A stretch of DNA of 64,000 bases from Gammaproteobacteria bacterium (GTDB taxonomy: Bacteria > Pseudomonadota > Gammaproteobacteria > Burkholderiales > Nitrosomonadaceae). Below, piece by piece: positions 4,225-36,687 of this stretch (position 1 is the stretch's first letter; every line of letters starts with the position of its first letter). The position numbers were made by a program, and so were the translations under genes. The notes below the pieces were generated by a model. That model searched no databases. It was not told where the DNA came from and worked only from the letters and a program-made list of their open reading frames with translations. The stretch is from the NCBI GenBank assembly GCA_030431985.1, contig JAUIIB010000012.1, forward strand, positions 1 through 64,000, given 5' to 3'.

Positions 4225-6336
4225 ATGAAACAAATTATATTAATGCAAGGGATTGTTATTGTTGGGTTGAGTCTATCGTTACAAGTGTCAGCTGAGCCGG
4301 TATTAATGCCGACAATTACAATTGAAGGGCAAGGAATACAGTCTAATCAAGTAAGTGTAACTCCAGAATCTGGTGGTGCATTGGATTCAGCACTGCTACT
4401 AAAACGGATACCGGGCGGGAATGTTAATAGTAATGGACCGCTAACTAATATTCCTCAGTATCGAGGATTATTTGGAAACAGGCTAGGCGTAAAACTAAAT
4501 GGTATAAGCGTTCAAGAGGTTGGCCCAAATGCGATGGATACACGTTCCAGTACTGTTCCTAAATCAATGGTTAGAAGTATTAAGGTTTATCGTGGTATTG
4601 CGCCAGTTAGTGCCGGAATGGAAACAATAGGAGGTGCGATTGAGATTAATTCGCGTCGAAGTGAATTTAGTAGCAGTGCAAAGTCAGAAGTAAATGGTTT
4701 TGTTAATTCTGGCTTTAGCTCAGTTGATACTGGTCGCTATTTTGGCGGTTTAATGAGTCTATCGAACGATAAACATCGGTTCCATGTAAGTGGCAATACT
4801 GAAAAAGGTGAGGATTATAGGTTTAAAGATAATAAAAAAGTTAGGCCGAGTGAATATCAACGGGATGTAATATCAGCTGGATACGCATTTAGGCCTAGTA
4901 GAGATCATGAAATATCGTTTGATTATGATTATAAGGACACTGGTAATACCGGCACCCCATCTTTACCGATGGATATTGGCTACGTTCGAACTCATCTGGG
5001 AAATATTGGTTATCAAGGTGCGCTATCAAATAATCTTAAGGTTAAATTTAATGGTTTTTTTAATCGTGGCGACCATCTCATGAGTAATCACTTGTTACGT
5101 CCGGCACCTAGGCCTGGAGGTGGCAATCAGCGTTTTCGTAGTGCAACAACAAAACTGGACTCAGGTGGGTACAATCTTCATTTTATTGTTCCGGAATTAC
5201 GCTCGGGTAGTCTGATTATTGGCTTTGACGGAGATCTGGCTGTTAATAATTCTGCGATTTCTGATCCCACCAATGGAAATTTCTTTTTAAATAACTTTGT
5301 AAACTCAACGAAAGAAAGGTATTCAAGTTTTGCTGAATGGAATGGAGAAATCGCCACAGATTTAATGCTTGAGATGGGTTTTCGTTACACCTATGTGCAT
5401 ATGAATACCGGCCAAGTTAATACCAGTATGGCGAATATGATGATGCCTGTACGTAATTTACAAGAACGTTTTAATAACTCAGATCGTAGTAAAAATGACC
5501 ATTTATTCGATGTGTCTACGGTGTTTCGTTATATCGCGTCCGATAACTTAGATTTCGAGTTTGGGATTGCGCGTAAAACTCGAGCACCAAGTTACCAAGA
5601 GCGTTTTCTGTGGATACCACTAGAATCAACTGGTGGTCTGGCTGATGGTAGAGTTTATGTGGGCGACACAAGCTTAAAACCGGAAAAGTCTTATCAAGTT
5701 GAACTAGGAGCTAATTTACATGGCGGCGGTGCTTATTTTACGCCACGTGCGTTCTACCGGTATGTGAATGATTTTATTCAAGGCTTACCAACTAATGATA
5801 CATTGACCAATATGGTCGCTGGAAGAATTCAGCCAGGCGGGCCGGGTCCTTTGCAATTTTCAAATATAGATGCGCATTTATGGGGTGTTGATTTTGAAAT
5901 AGGGTACACGATTACTGACTATCTACGATTAGATGGAATTATGAGTTTTGTGCGAGGTAAACGAACAAGCGGTAATGACAATTTGTATCGTATTGCCCCA
6001 GTAAATGGCCGTCTCAGTTTAACTTATGAACGTTCAGATTGGTTGGCTTCGGTAACCTATATTGGCGCGATGAAACAAGATAAGGTTGCAGCTTTTAACG
6101 GCGAACAAAAAACTTCCGGATATAGCATTATGAATGTCTATACACAATATCGCCCTTCATTCAGCAATAAAGTTAAAGGACTAACTCTTACAGCTGGAGT
6201 CAATAATATTATCGATACCAAATATGTTGATCATCTTAATGGTATCAACCGTGCCGCTAATAGCAATATCTCCTTGAATCGACGTATCCCAAACCCAGGC
6301 CGCAATATTTTTGTTACGATGCGTTATGATTGGTGA
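4225..6336 (+). CDS. TonB-dependent outer membrane receptor, probable metal or metallophore type
   Basis: A receptor of 703 residues with a signal peptide (MKQIILMQGIVIVGLSLSL, cleavage after VSA), a plug with IPQYRGLFGNRLGVKLNG, SIKVYRGIAPVSAGMETIGG and AIEINSRRSEF, and a barrel ending MRYDW. I prefer the ATG at 4225 to the in-frame ATG at 4201 because an AGG ribosome site lies about 11 bases before it and the signal peptide then starts normally. The plug phrases recall proteobacterial receptors often found near metal genes; the substrate is unproven. It follows the His-rich protein. Base composition is more AT-rich than the 6.6-11 kb genes, which together with the adjacent insertion sequence remnant hints at transfer. 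Confidence 0.88.
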   Translation: MKQIILMQGIVIVGLSLSLQVSAEPVLMPTITIEGQGIQSNQVSVTPESGGALDSALLLKRIPGGNVNSNGPLTNIPQYRGLFGNRLGVKLNGISVQEVGPNAMDTRSSTVPKSMVRSIKVYRGIAPVSAGMETIGGAIEINSRRSEFSSSAKSEVNGFVNSGFSSVDTGRYFGGLMSLSNDKHRFHVSGNTEKGEDYRFKDNKKVRPSEYQRDVISAGYAFRPSRDHEISFDYDYKDTGNTGTPSLPMDIGYVRTHLGNIGYQGALSNNLKVKFNGFFNRGDHLMSNHLLRPAPRPGGGNQRFRSATTKLDSGGYNLHFIVPELRSGSLIIGFDGDLAVNNSAISDPTNGNFFLNNFVNSTKERYSSFAEWNGEIATDLMLEMGFRYTYVHMNTGQVNTSMANMMMPVRNLQERFNNSDRSKNDHLFDVSTVFRYIASDNLDFEFGIARKTRAPSYQERFLWIPLESTGGLADGRVYVGDTSLKPEKSYQVELGANLHGGGAYFTPRAFYRYVNDFIQGLPTNDTLTNMVAGRIQPGGPGPLQFSNIDAHLWGVDFEIGYTITDYLRLDGIMSFVRGKRTSGNDNLYRIAPVNGRLSLTYERSDWLASVTYIGAMKQDKVAAFNGEQKTSGYSIMNVYTQYRPSFSNKVKGLTLTAGVNNIIDTKYVDHLNGINRAANSNISLNRRIPNPGRNIFVTMRYDW

Positions 6337-31135: not shown

Positions 31136-33166
31136 ATGACAGAAAAATCTGTACGCCTTGTAAAACAATATAGTCGGCAGACTCGAAGACTTAGATTCGG
31201 TTACATCATTGCCTTTGTAGTGCTAATCATTATGACAATTTCAAATTTTATCGTAATGAATCTGATGATAACCAATCAGGATAAAATCAACATCCTGACT
31301 AAATCAGTCGATAGTCAATTACATAGGTTTCATCGGATTGATGAAATTGTTCTGATCGTACTGCGTAATGTAGAAAGACGGCAAATGAGTGCAACGCTCG
31401 CACATCAAACACAGGCAGAGCTTATTCTTCTCACAGCAGAACTAAATAATATTCAGAAAACAATAAAACTGAATTTCCAGGATTATGATAGCTTCGGCCT
31501 ATCCCTGGAAGACGAACTCGGCATCCTTTTCAAAGAACCTTACCAACTCGTCAATTCCGTAGACGATTTAATTACCCATTTAAAAGATTTGACCGGCGAA
31601 GATTTTATGCTGCTTAACCGGCGCTACTCACTCTGGACGCCGATCATATTGGCAATGGGATCGAATAGCAAAATTTCTCGAGGAACTCAGAAACTACAAT
31701 CCCTGCTTGAAACGAAATCTGAATACAACATGAAAGCGTTGAGTCGAGTGCACCATAGCTTAACGATAGTATCGGTTATGGTCATATTTCTAGAGATAAT
31801 ACTCATATTCTTCCCACTTCTCAATCAACTCAATCATGTACATAAGAAAATTGTTAAAAACAGCGAGAAATTAGACTATCTGGCGACCACAGACACTTTG
31901 ACAAGTTTGGGTAACCGTCGCATGTTCGAACATACCATTAATGCCATTCTGCAAGACTCCACGTTACGATACGGAATCAGCCTCACGCTCCTTGACTTAA
32001 ATGACTTTAAGCTGATCAATGATACCAGTGGCTATATTGTCGGCGACCATGTACTTAAAGTTATTGCTAAACGCTTAAAAAATAACATGCCATTAAATTC
32101 ACATGCGTTTCGTTTAAGTGGCGACGAGTTTGTACTGATAATTCTTTCCGAAAAAGATTGTAAATTCGTAAATCAGCTCGTAACAGAATTAATAGACAAG
32201 GTATTCAAACCCATCAACTATAAAAACGCAACGCTGCTAATTAGTGCATGCGCCGGTATTACTTATAACTGGATAAACGGTGGCAGTCACAATATTGACG
32301 ACATGCTAAATAATGCCAATCTGGCGCTTCGTTTAGCTAAAAGTCAAGGCAAAGGAAAAATCGCTACCTACAACGATGACGAGATAATTAACCAAAAACG
32401 CCGCCAGAAAATGTCTATCGCGCTGCAACAAGCTATTGCCGATCATTCAGTACGTGCTTTTTATCAGCCCCAATTTGATTTAACAACAATGCAAATAGTC
32501 GGTGTAGAGGCGCTGGCTCGATGGATACATTCAGATGGACACATTATATCGCCCAATAAGTTTATTCCAGTAATTGAAGAATATAACATGCAGGGGGTGT
32601 TACTCCGGCATTTTCTAAGTCAAATAAAAAACCACCATGACCAATTAGATAAATCAGGTATTTCAATAACGTTTAGTATCAACATTACTGAGAAGATATT
32701 GATTGATAAGCATGCTATCAATTACTTTCTGGAAATACTCAACAGTGACCATTTACCCTGGCTCCATTTGGAAATATTGGAAACTGCGGTCATACATAGA
32801 GCCTCAGTTCACATTGCAGAGAACCTTGATCGCTTTATGCAGTGTGGCGTCAAAATTGCGCTTGATGACTTTGGAACAGGGCATGCCTCGCTTAAACATT
32901 TACAAAATTTTCCTTATGACATTATTAAGATAGATAAATCCTTTATCACCGATTTAAATGTTGATTACCGTTCCAATCATATTGTCGAAGGGATTGTTAA
33001 AATCGCACAAGGGCTAAAGAAAGCAATAGTAGCCGAAGGGGTTGAATTAGAATCACAAAAAGAATTTCTAAGAAAACTCGGAGCGAACTACGGCCAAGGA
33101 TTTTTGTGCAGTAAGGCTGTCGAATTCGATAGCTTACTCACTTTATTAAACCGTCAAAAATGTTAG
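31136..33166 (+). CDS. Membrane GGDEF-EAL cyclic di-GMP protein
   Basis: A 676-residue inner membrane signalling protein. A transmembrane helix (about 22-46), a periplasmic domain of about 160 residues with no family I recognise, and a second helix (about 207-230) precede a GGDEF domain (about 245-415) and an EAL domain (about 430-670). The GGDEF signature reads SGDEF, so cyclase activity may be weak. The EAL domain keeps its catalytic set: VEALARW, SINIT, EILETAVI, DDFGTG, IKIDKSF, AEGVE and QGFLCSKAVE. It should therefore degrade c-di-GMP. The next gene, a periplasmic binding protein, starts 4 bases later, suggesting a ligand-sensing pair. Confidence 0.92.
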   Translation: MTEKSVRLVKQYSRQTRRLRFGYIIAFVVLIIMTISNFIVMNLMITNQDKINILTKSVDSQLHRFHRIDEIVLIVLRNVERRQMSATLAHQTQAELILLTAELNNIQKTIKLNFQDYDSFGLSLEDELGILFKEPYQLVNSVDDLITHLKDLTGEDFMLLNRRYSLWTPIILAMGSNSKISRGTQKLQSLLETKSEYNMKALSRVHHSLTIVSVMVIFLEIILIFFPLLNQLNHVHKKIVKNSEKLDYLATTDTLTSLGNRRMFEHTINAILQDSTLRYGISLTLLDLNDFKLINDTSGYIVGDHVLKVIAKRLKNNMPLNSHAFRLSGDEFVLIILSEKDCKFVNQLVTELIDKVFKPINYKNATLLISACAGITYNWINGGSHNIDDMLNNANLALRLAKSQGKGKIATYNDDEIINQKRRQKMSIALQQAIADHSVRAFYQPQFDLTTMQIVGVEALARWIHSDGHIISPNKFIPVIEEYNMQGVLLRHFLSQIKNHHDQLDKSGISITFSINITEKILIDKHAINYFLEILNSDHLPWLHLEILETAVIHRASVHIAENLDRFMQCGVKIALDDFGTGHASLKHLQNFPYDIIKIDKSFITDLNVDYRSNHIVEGIVKIAQGLKKAIVAEGVELESQKEFLRKLGANYGQGFLCSKAVEFDSLLTLLNRQKC

Positions 33167-33170
33167 ATTA

Positions 33171-34493
33171 ATGATTGATAAGTATCTATTCGAAAAAAAT
33201 AACACAATTGACATAGCGTACAACAATTATCGCACGCAGATTTCGATTGTTCTGATTGTAATCATAACGTTATCGATTCATCCAAATGCGCATTCAAACA
33301 CCAGTTATTATAACCAGTTTGAGTTCATGCACTTCTGGAGAACTCAAAGTGAGTATCTTGCCCTAAGTGTACTTTCAGAAGAATTTATCCGCCGTGGGGG
33401 CAAGTGGATAGATACAACATCTGATGACTATGATTTTATGAAACGTGATGCATTATTAAGAATATCAGCTGGCTTCCCCCCGTCCGCCATGTTCTGGCTT
33501 GGCGGTGTCGATACAAAATATTTGCATTCACTTCAAGTCGTCACACCGTTGAATCAATTCATTGACATCTCAGCAATAAAAAAGCAACTTCCTGATTTTG
33601 TTATAGATATAATCGATATCGATGGTCAAATCGTAGCGTTGCCATCTTCTATTCATAATGTAAGCTTTGCGTGGTTTAATTTATCGATTTATCAGAAATT
33701 AGGATTAACAGTACCTGTTACCTGGGAACAGGTTGTGCAGCAGGCCCCTATAATAGCCGCCTCAGGCTATTACCCCTTGGCCATTGGGAACCAGGATTGG
33801 TTAATGACTATGTGGTTTGCAAATATGGTGGCCGGTATAGGTGGAAAAACACTGTATCACCAGATTTTTGTCAAAAACGATATGGACGCACTCGATAATT
33901 CCAAAATACGGGAAATTCTTACAATTATGGCTACGCTGCGCCATTATTTACCAGCGAAAACAAAAAACGAACTATGGAATGATGCAACACGCCTAGTAGC
34001 CGAGGGAAAAGCAGCGATGCATATTATGGGAGACTGGGCCAAAACAGAATTTCAACAACTGGGAGCACGTATGGATAAAGATATCGCGTGCACAAGTGTG
34101 CCTGATACACATGGGATAGCTATTGCTACCGTCGATTTAATTGTATTTCCAAAATTAAAAAATCAGCAGCAACAAAAATGGCAAAAGCTTTTCATCGATG
34201 TGATGACTGATCATAATATTCAAGTTAATTTTGCAAAATATAAAGGATCAATTCCTGCACTTAAACACATGAATATAGCGCTATTAGACTCGTGTGCCCG
34301 GATAAGCCGAATCTCACTCCTTAATCCGAAAACCAGGCTACCTTCTCCACGCTTAACCATGTCGGAAGAATTATTGGCAAAACTCGGTATGGTATTGTAT
34401 GGCTTTGTCAATACTCCTGATATGACCATCGATAGTGTCATTAAACAGTTATCTGACCTTAAATCATTCACAATAATCAACACAAAGCAGTAA
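33171..34493 (+). CDS. Periplasmic solute-binding protein, carbohydrate ABC type
   Basis: A 440-residue family 1 solute-binding protein. A hydrophobic signal region (about 22-42, ending NAHS) precedes the mature domain with FMHFWRTQSEYLALSVLSEE, RRGGKWIDTT, FPPSAMFWLGG, PVTWEQVVQQAP and ASGYYPLAIGNQDWL. This is the pattern of sugar-binding (COG1653) proteins. No ABC permease or ATPase gene accompanies it. Instead it is coupled to a GGDEF-EAL protein 4 bases upstream, so I infer it works as a periplasmic sensor subunit. The long charged N terminus before the signal helix is odd and the true start may lie further in. Confidence 0.85.
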   Translation: MIDKYLFEKNNTIDIAYNNYRTQISIVLIVIITLSIHPNAHSNTSYYNQFEFMHFWRTQSEYLALSVLSEEFIRRGGKWIDTTSDDYDFMKRDALLRISAGFPPSAMFWLGGVDTKYLHSLQVVTPLNQFIDISAIKKQLPDFVIDIIDIDGQIVALPSSIHNVSFAWFNLSIYQKLGLTVPVTWEQVVQQAPIIAASGYYPLAIGNQDWLMTMWFANMVAGIGGKTLYHQIFVKNDMDALDNSKIREILTIMATLRHYLPAKTKNELWNDATRLVAEGKAAMHIMGDWAKTEFQQLGARMDKDIACTSVPDTHGIAIATVDLIVFPKLKNQQQQKWQKLFIDVMTDHNIQVNFAKYKGSIPALKHMNIALLDSCARISRISLLNPKTRLPSPRLTMSEELLAKLGMVLYGFVNTPDMTIDSVIKQLSDLKSFTIINTKQ

Positions 34494-36105: not shown

Positions 36106-36687
36106 TTGCCAATGCTCATCCTACCAAAATCCTGCTTCCTGCATGTCCCCAAAACAGGTGGTTCATGGGTAAAAAAAGCAATTGCCGCCGCAGGAATACC
36201 TTGTAAAAGCTATGAAATGTCGGGTAATCCGCATATCGGCCTGAAAAACTGCCCTTGTCCAGAAAAATTCAAATTTGCATTTGTCAGGCACCCGGTCAAT
36301 TTATATCGCTCATACTGGCAATACAAAATGACTTTTGGATGGGATTCGGACAACCTCCTCGACCAAACATGCCAATCGGATAATTTTCGGCAATTTATTC
36401 GTCACGTACTGGATCAATTCTCAGGTGTTTATAGCGATAACTTGATTGAATTCATAGGTGAAACAAATGATGAAATCGAGTTTGTCGGCAAATATGAAAA
36501 TTTGGTTGACGATTTAATCGCTGCTTTAAATTCAGCCGGAGAAACATTTGACGAACAAATTATCAGGACACTGCCGCCCTTCAATGTCAGTGATAAAGTT
36601 CAATTTCCCGCTGTCTACACGCCCCAGCTTGAAGCCGAAATCAAGCTCGCCGAACAGAAGATCATGTCACGATTTGATTATGTATAA
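36106..36687 (+). CDS. Sulfotransferase-family protein
   Basis: A 193-residue protein with the two PAPS-binding signatures of sulfotransferases: 5'-phosphosulfate loop HVPKTGGSWVKKAI (about residues 11-24) and 3'-phosphate segment FAFVRHPVNLYRSYW (about 57-71). It has no signal peptide. It is shorter than typical carbohydrate sulfotransferases, but the core is present. The acceptor is unknown. It follows speDE by 55 bases and precedes a converging regulator. Confidence 0.8.
   Translation: MPMLILPKSCFLHVPKTGGSWVKKAIAAAGIPCKSYEMSGNPHIGLKNCPCPEKFKFAFVRHPVNLYRSYWQYKMTFGWDSDNLLDQTCQSDNFRQFIRHVLDQFSGVYSDNLIEFIGETNDEIEFVGKYENLVDDLIAALNSAGETFDEQIIRTLPPFNVSDKVQFPAVYTPQLEAEIKLAEQKIMSRFDYV

What the first reader, a model, noticed from the sequence alone, without database searches (positions are those of the whole stretch)
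31136..34493. Periplasmic binding protein coupled to a GGDEF-EAL membrane protein
The genes are 4 bases apart, and there are no ABC permease genes. The layout (periplasmic binding protein, two-helix receptor with SGDEF and intact EAL) parallels the NspS-MbaA polyamine sensor of Vibrio, but here the binding protein has the pattern of sugar-binding proteins. Flanking genes are glycogen synthase and a spermidine synthesis fusion, so the ligand could be a sugar or a polyamine. This may be an undescribed nutrient-to-c-di-GMP switch.
Basis: partly seen in the sequence, partly recalled or inferred. Interest (0 to 1): 0.75.

Follow-up and report, generated by a model that had tools for sequence, protein, structure and literature searches.

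The report
Sugar-binding protein coupled to c-di-GMP receptor
A bacterium carries a two-gene unit in which a sugar-catching protein outside the inner membrane probably tells a membrane enzyme when to change c-di-GMP, the signal that decides between sticking and swimming, and the same unit turns up in distant bacteria, including root-nodule symbionts.

Summary
A 676-aa two-helix GGDEF-EAL receptor (31136-33166) is followed after 4 bases by a 440-aa solute-binding protein (SBP; 33171-34493), with no adjacent permease.

The pairing is not chance. The same order, receptor then SBP, recurs in Roseateles, Litchfieldella (two tandem SBPs), a congener and rhizobial plasmids: 32 of 34 plasmid records with a related sensor domain have the SBP directly downstream. 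The 14 paired SBPs separate from 77 other family members at 98/98.

The SBP belongs to the Pseudomonas glucose-binding (GltB) family. It keeps six family-wide pocket residues but lacks glucose-type K92, N301 and H379. This points to a carbohydrate, not a polyamine. The periplasmic domain is a predicted helical bundle without a Pfam family, with no sequence similarity to a Vibrio MbaA-like sensor. No MalF/MalG-type permease was found in the 91%-complete assembly. A congener has glgA and speDE adjacent without the pair, so these neighbours say nothing about the ligand.

Best reading: a sugar-to-c-di-GMP switch that works like NspS-MbaA or GltB-GtrS without being an NspS-MbaA homologue. Binding, ligand and sign of output are untested. 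New variant of a known kind.

The parts
31136..33166 (+). membrane receptor gene, 676 aa: helix, periplasmic domain, helix, GGDEF, EAL
31202..31258 (+). transmembrane segment 1 (residues 23-41)
   Evidence: hydropathy
31274..31753 (+). periplasmic sensor domain (residues about 47-206); predicted helical bundle, no Pfam family
31622..31645 (+). sensor motif RYSLWTPI (residues 163-170), R[YF][ST]xW, in 17 of 17 GGDEF-EAL receptors of the family examined (two of them, L045 and L123, are the same protein)
   Evidence: 16 of 16; L180
31766..31822 (+). transmembrane segment 2 (residues 211-229)
   Evidence: hydropathy
31883..32356 (+). GGDEF domain (residues 250-407), active-site motif SGDEF (328-332)
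32420..33115 (+). EAL phosphodiesterase domain (residues 429-660); E458, N516, E546, E549, D577, D578, K598, E634, Q654 kept in 17 of 17 family receptors
33171..34493 (+). solute-binding protein gene, 440 aa, GltB/glucose-binding family
33171..33296 (+). N-terminal export signal (residues 1-42; hydrophobic core about 24-36, likely cut after AHS), no lipobox seen
   Evidence: read from the sequence; a 19-residue hydropathy scan at threshold 1.6 did not flag it
33333..34244 (+). stretch holding the conserved sugar-pocket residues F55, W56, E61, W269, W289, D322, K358

Best explanation
A two-gene signalling unit. The SBP is exported, closes on a carbohydrate and docks on the helical-bundle periplasmic domain of its own receptor; the change passes through TM2 to the GGDEF-EAL module and alters c-di-GMP phosphodiesterase output, possibly with some cyclase activity through SGDEF. 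Shown here: gene pairing, co-inheritance, family membership, retention of a sugar-pocket core, intact EAL positions, no matching importer found in the assembly. Inferred: export, docking, carbohydrate as signal, EAL as main output. The sign is unknown; by analogy with NspS-MbaA I would guess that the loaded SBP restrains the phosphodiesterase (about 55:45).
For: Of the 80 best SBP relatives in genome contigs, 3 have a GGDEF-EAL gene directly upstream on the same strand (L028, L037, L045), and all 3 fall in the window's SBP clade; 0 of the other 77 do. 32 of 34 rhizobial plasmid records with the related sensor domain carry an SBP (at least 61% identical to that of L045) 1.37-1.51 kb after the sensor, same strand. 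Further pairs: G785 and G461 and congener G949, ATGA overlap. 14 paired SBPs versus 77 others: 98/98. Receptor and SBP trees share four groups. Six pocket residues are kept in 19 of 19 signalling-paired SBPs, and nine EAL-domain positions in 17 of 17 receptors. Best fold matches are glucose/galactose-binding proteins. No sugar permease found in the assembly. Precedent within the same SBP family: P. aeruginosa GltB binds the GtrS periplasmic domain (KD 0.1 uM) and needs its glucose pocket to activate it (sections 3.5 and 3.6 of PMC7927077).
Against: The sensor model is weak (mean pLDDT 71, pTM 0.46). Window, Roseateles and G949 rows are long branches in the trees, and no AU test was run. The six pocket residues are also kept in the ABC- and TCS-linked rows, so they show the family, not the signalling role. 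In the genus the pair is rare: 0 of 36 same-genus genomes match the SBP, and of 10 same-genus genomes listed besides the own one matches the sensor profile (G949, at another place). The assembly is 91% complete, so a missing transporter cannot be excluded. Glucose-specific residues are lost, so the ligand is unknown.
Confidence: 0.72

Rival explanations
1. The SBP serves an ABC importer encoded elsewhere, and its place behind the receptor reflects co-regulation only.
For: 65 of 80 related loci have a sugar-permease match within the fetched stretch; assembly 91% complete.
Against: The 9 permease matches in the genome are of Opp/Dpp-like, Pst, PhnU2/Fbp-like and LolCE/ADOP-like types; only the two Pst proteins exceed NCBIfam cut-offs, the others are named by their best match below cut-off. 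The only other SBP_bac_1 match lies beside the PhnU2/Fbp-like permease. 0 of 15 other paired loci examined have a match to the two sugar-permease queries, though one (L125) has an unrelated carbohydrate permease annotated upstream. SBP and receptor are co-inherited.
Confidence: 0.1
2. The pair senses a polyamine, as NspS-MbaA does.
For: Same type of layout (SBP plus GGDEF-EAL receptor), SGDEF in both; speDE lies downstream.
Against: SBP family, pocket residues and fold are of glucose/galactose-binding type; no meaningful similarity to a Vibrio NspS-like SBP or MbaA-like sensor; glgA and speDE are adjacent without the pair in G006.
Confidence: 0.04
3. The receptor is a bifunctional or mainly cyclase enzyme that raises c-di-GMP when sugar is bound.
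For: GGDEF intact in 15 of 17 receptors, SGDEF in the window, GGNEF in Roseateles; SGDEF of MbaA is needed in vivo.
Against: Nine EAL-domain positions are kept in 17 of 17 receptors, although G949 has ETL for EAL; the GGDEF motif is the one that varies, and only in the window's group.
Confidence: 0.3
4. The pair is a decaying accessory insertion with no present function.
For: AT-richer than its neighbours (receptor 38.5%, SBP 39.2% GC; glgA 44.9%, speDE 46.4%), rare in the genus; remnants exist elsewhere (L163, L170).
Against: Both frames are open, with pocket, EAL and sensor motifs kept although identity to relatives is only 23-39% in the SBP and 17-22% in the sensor.
Confidence: 0.06

Closest known systems
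NspS-MbaA polyamine receptor (Vibrio cholerae; also Sinorhizobium meliloti)
   Same: Separate periplasmic SBP plus two-helix receptor with tandem GGDEF-EAL, tightly linked genes; MbaA also has SGDEF (passages).
   Different: NspS is PotD-like and lies upstream of mbaA; here the SBP is GltB-like and lies downstream. The sensor domain of a Vibrio MbaA-like protein (L196/L212) shows no similarity to the window's. MbaA has EVL, the window EAL.
GltB-GtrS-GltR glucose sensing (Pseudomonas aeruginosa)
   Same: SBP of the same family, shown to bind the periplasmic domain of a membrane sensor and to need its pocket residues.
   Different: Output there is a histidine kinase, and GltB belongs to the gltBFGK-oprB operon (heading seen); here GGDEF-EAL and no importer found. 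K92, N301, H379 of GltB-type pockets are missing.
ChvE-VirA sugar sensing (Agrobacterium)
   Same: Sugar SBP acting on the periplasmic domain of a membrane receptor (passages).
   Different: ChvE belongs to another SBP family (recalled), and VirA is a kinase.
ScrB-ScrC (Vibrio parahaemolyticus)
   Same: SBP-like periplasmic protein with a GGDEF-EAL receptor (recalled; part of a related title seen in the reference list of PMC9602780).
   Different: Ligand not a sugar (recalled); not compared by sequence here.
EIIAGlc-PdeS (Vibrio cholerae)
   Same: Sugar-dependent control of a c-di-GMP phosphodiesterase (passages of PMC8846402).
   Different: Cytoplasmic, through the PTS; no SBP.

Membership tests
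NspS-MbaA | SBP of PotD/PotF (polyamine) type | tested here: not met
   25 PDB sequence matches at E 0.01 or better, none named as polyamine-binding, best are glucose-binding proteins; no meaningful match to a Vibrio NspS-like SBP (17.7 bits, E 0.59)
NspS-MbaA | sensor domain homologous to MbaA's | tested here: not met
   best local score 15.4 bits, E 1.7, to the MbaA-like protein of Vibrio plantisponsor. It was identified here by its overlapping PotD-like SBP, not by name; no V. cholerae MbaA sequence was held
NspS-MbaA | SBP gene upstream of the receptor gene | tested here: not met
   reverse order in the window and in 15 of 15 other pairs examined
NspS-MbaA | two-helix receptor with tandem GGDEF-EAL | tested here: met
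GltB / glucose-type SBP family | sequence and fold of the Pseudomonas glucose-binding protein | tested here: met
   phmmer E 7e-46; Foldseek top hits ppGBP, TM 0.93 by target for 5dvj
GltB / glucose-type SBP family | twelve glucose-contact residues | tested here: not met
   6 of 12 identical, one W to F; Q90, K92, N301 replaced, G68 and H379 gapped
ABC carbohydrate importer | MalF/MalG-type permease genes | tested here: not met
   none adjacent; none among 9 PF00528 matches in an assembly 91% complete
EAL phosphodiesterases | EAL motif and the other catalytic positions | tested here: met
   E458, N516, E546, E549, D577, D578, K598, E634, Q654; that these are the catalytic positions is recalled
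EAL phosphodiesterases | c-di-GMP hydrolysis | not testable with these tools
   needs enzyme assay

The most novel reading that the evidence does not exclude
A family of sugar-to-c-di-GMP switches spread over alpha-, beta- and gammaproteobacteria. A dedicated clade of GltB-like binding proteins has lost transport and is read by an unnamed helical sensor domain that can be attached to GGDEF-EAL or, in one case (L039), to a histidine kinase. In rhizobia it sits on large plasmids, where it could tie plant-derived sugars to attachment.
Probability: 0.6. Interest if true: 0.75.

Novelty: new variant of a known kind. Interest (0 to 1): 0.62.

Why it matters
A 2022 review of c-di-GMP sensing says that of the 27 PBP-clan families only SBP_bac_3 had been studied in c-di-GMP networks, and gives the PTS route (EIIAGlc-PdeS) as its example for sugars (passages). 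A sugar-type SBP that reports to a GGDEF-EAL enzyme would give a direct extracellular sugar input to the attach-or-swim decision. Its presence on rhizobial plasmids makes it testable in laboratory strains and names a concrete gene pair (RHECIAT_PC0000632/633 in R. etli CIAT 652).

Tried and rejected
Flanking genes as a clue to the ligand: rejected, because G006 has glgA and speDE adjacent without the pair.

Sensor domain by single sequence in the class: only the own genome of 369; a profile of four members was needed.

Weak profile hits (E 6e-7 to 9e-4) in 8 of the 12 matching phylum genomes and (E 1.5e-7 to 2.9e-4) in 5 of the 7 matching order genomes: 7 of the 8 (L160, L164-L169; not G049) and 2 of the 5 (L181, L182) were opened as wider regions; none of these 9 holds a pair SBP. 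Several carry GRQRMLSQR-type helical sensors, some on kinases. I read these as distant helical bundles, not members.

Fold search of the sensor: no match at E 0.001 or better; designed helical bundles first and, lower down, Tar, Tsr and NarQ among many unrelated helical proteins. No more can be said than 'helical bundle'.

Ammonia oxidation as a clue to the host: PF02461 not found, but no control genome rang either, so the answer is void. No call names the organism.

NspS-MbaA among the 30 SBP_bac_8 loci returned for five Vibrionaceae (of about 90 matches): none showed a GGDEF/EAL match; found later from the receptor side.

My first EAL motif patterns were too narrow (the E-x-x-E and EGxE patterns matched 8 and 1 of 16 rows); an alignment settled it.
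Full report
What is there. The two genes are as described: 31136-33166 (676 aa) and 33171-34493 (440 aa), both +, four bases apart. The first has transmembrane segments at residues 23-41 and 211-229, GGDEF and EAL domains and SGDEF and EAL motifs. The second is an SBP_bac_1 protein with a signal-like N-terminus read from the sequence; my hydropathy scan did not flag it at its threshold.

What the SBP is. By sequence its nearest solved relatives are the Pseudomonas putida glucose-binding protein (5xpj, 5dvf; E 7e-46 and 2e-45) and the SAR11 glucose-binding protein 8hqq (2e-45) (names). Its predicted structure (mean pLDDT 88.9) matches ppGBP with galactose (5dvj) at TM 0.93 by target length. Twelve residues contact glucose in ppGBP (list from section 3.6 of PMC7927077). 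The window keeps W36, E41, W250, W270, D303 and K339 as W56, E61, W269, W289, D322 and K358, has F55 for W35, and lacks the rest. The same six are kept in 19 of 19 signalling-paired SBPs, with Y or F at W35 in all, and none has G68, K92, N301 or H379. The six are also kept in the ABC- and TCS-linked rows, and many ABC rows also lack K92 and H379, so neither is a mark of signalling; they speak for a carbohydrate pocket of changed specificity. The P. aeruginosa residue matching D303 is needed for glucose to stabilise GltB. That the ligand is a carbohydrate is inference.

Is it a transporter part? The assembly (2.73 Mb, 62 contigs, 91% complete) has 9 matches to the permease family PF00528: Opp/Dpp-like, PstA/PstC, one PhnU2/Fbp-like protein with two matches, and a LolCE/ADOP-like protein below the Pfam cut-off. 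Only the Pst proteins pass an NCBIfam cut-off; the other names are best matches below it. The genome has two SBP_bac_1 matches: this one and one beside the PhnU2/Fbp-like permease. A protein search of the own genome found a single copy of the SBP.

Is the pairing more than chance? In 65 of 80 a sugar-permease match lies in the fetched stretch (one of these, L083, on the other strand at the edge). In 3 a GGDEF-EAL gene lies directly upstream: the best hit Roseateles oligotrophus (39%), Litchfieldella anticariensis (with two tandem SBPs) and a Rhizobium. In a fourth, L039, a histidine kinase lies 8 bases upstream. 0 of the other 77 have GGDEF-EAL directly upstream; two have GGDEF or GGDEF-EAL matches about 3.8-3.9 kb away (L082, L103). 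Spacing in pairs: 4-base ATGA overlap in Roseateles and congener G949, 49 and 25 bases in Litchfieldella and Rhizobium.

Rhizobial plasmids. The Rhizobium sensor domain finds 34 plasmid records. 32 of 34 carry an SBP at least 61% identical to the L045 SBP, same strand, 1.37-1.51 kb after the sensor; of the 85 further records with an SBP of this family the 28 listed are at 32-35%. Several of the 34 are strains of one species with identical scores, so they are not 34 independent events. I opened 10 of the 34: nine hold the pair; one of the two exceptions (S. americanum CFNEI 73) holds an SBP in two frames, matched only in part; the other exception was not opened. In one of the nine (L125) an unrelated carbohydrate permease and ABC ATPase are annotated upstream; none of the nine matched the two sugar-permease queries. 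L123 carries the same receptor protein as L045.

Sensor profile in 398 phylum genomes: 12 match; besides the own, G785 (two SBPs) and G461 hold complete pairs and G661 a remnant. In 399 order genomes: 7 match; besides the own, the congener G949 holds a pair at another place. With the SBP as query, 6 of 61 genomes (own included) and 0 of 36 other same-genus genomes match. In G006 the genes ADH, glgA, speDE and crp stand in the same order as here without the pair. The pair is therefore an accessory insertion here; it is also AT-richer than its neighbours.

Descent. In a tree of 94 SBPs (95 assembled, one dropped for a failed translation) the 14 GGDEF-EAL-paired SBPs plus the kinase-paired L039 are one side of a 98/96 branch. 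With L039 and two other long rows left out, the 14 stand against 77 others at 98/98. The program warns that long branches (window, Roseateles) meet there, and no AU test was run, so a single origin is likely, not proven. A receptor-sensor tree and an SBP tree of 17 rows agree on window/Roseateles/G949, Litchfieldella/G785, L045/L123/L127 and L121/L122/G461; the inner order of the first group and the place of L126 differ, and the sensor tree has very long branches.

The sensor domain. It has no Pfam family in the window or in five relatives scanned, is all helix in a moderate model (pLDDT 71, pTM 0.46) and has no significant fold match. A motif R[YF][ST]xW before TM2 is in 17 of 17 GGDEF-EAL receptors; the kinase L039 has RYARP at that place.

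The output domains. Nine EAL-domain positions are kept in 17 of 17 receptors; the motif is EAL in 16 and ETL in G949. GGDEF is intact in 15, SGDEF in the window, GGNEF in Roseateles. This favours phosphodiesterase as the constant output; cyclase activity is not excluded.

Mechanism. Within this SBP family, P. aeruginosa GltB binds the GtrS ligand-binding domain with KD 0.1 uM; of five pocket mutants three abolish and two halve the glucose response (sections read). GltB bound two other receptor domains as well. A survey states that SBPs can activate chemoreceptors, kinases and c-di-GMP enzymes (passages). I therefore infer that the loaded SBP docks on the helical bundle and changes EAL output. 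In V. cholerae NspS with norspermidine is reported to inhibit MbaA phosphodiesterase, and MbaA SGDEF is needed in vivo (passages of PMC8079147); the sign here is open.

Comparison and novelty. It works like NspS-MbaA but fails three of its defining features: PotD-like SBP, sensor homology, gene order (and the maps above). The MbaA comparison used a Vibrio plantisponsor protein that I identified by its overlapping PotD-like SBP (17 bases; the paper gives 16 for V. cholerae). Five paper searches for a sugar-type SBP paired with GGDEF-EAL gave none by title or abstract start in their listings, three of them cut; the library lacks most subscription papers. A comparative study of alphaproteobacterial c-di-GMP genes has no occurrence of 'binding protein' in its main text. 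A study of c-di-GMP and the R. etli secretome, searched by terms only, showed no passage on such a pair.

Noticed in passing
L008:1315-3645 (-) and L011:1480-3852 (-): In order-mate G040 two proteins carry an MCP signalling domain (named from sequence) with a GltB-like SBP fused to the C-terminus; by usual topology the SBP would face the cytoplasm.
   Followed up: partly
L013, L051, L091, L093, L101: Aeromonas, Vibrio and Photobacterium have response regulator, histidine kinase and GltB-like SBP in a row with no permease match in the stretch. K92 and N301 are kept, H379 is E or Q: apparently sensing without an adjacent importer.
   Followed up: no
L060, L065, L070, L072, L079, L103 around 5000-6200: Massilia and Duganella SBPs of this family without a permease match; in the two opened (L065, L072) they sit beside tryptophan-halogenase-like, LacI-like and beta-glucosidase-like genes (names recalled from sequence).
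   Followed up: no
L039:3445-6185: A histidine kinase with a related helical sensor and an SBP of the same clade 8 bases downstream: same input module, other output.
   Followed up: partly
L163:4496-5229 and L170:7204-7796: Remnants: a sensor start running into a truncated SBP, and an SBP split between frames behind an intact receptor.
   Followed up: partly
window 36106-36687: Sulfotransferase-like ORF between speDE and crp that has no match in the corresponding stretch of G006 (name from the sequence, not scanned).
   Followed up: no
L123:8821-10488 and L045:6579-8246: A globin-coupled chemotaxis sensor lies just downstream of the pair in this rhizobial branch.
   Followed up: no
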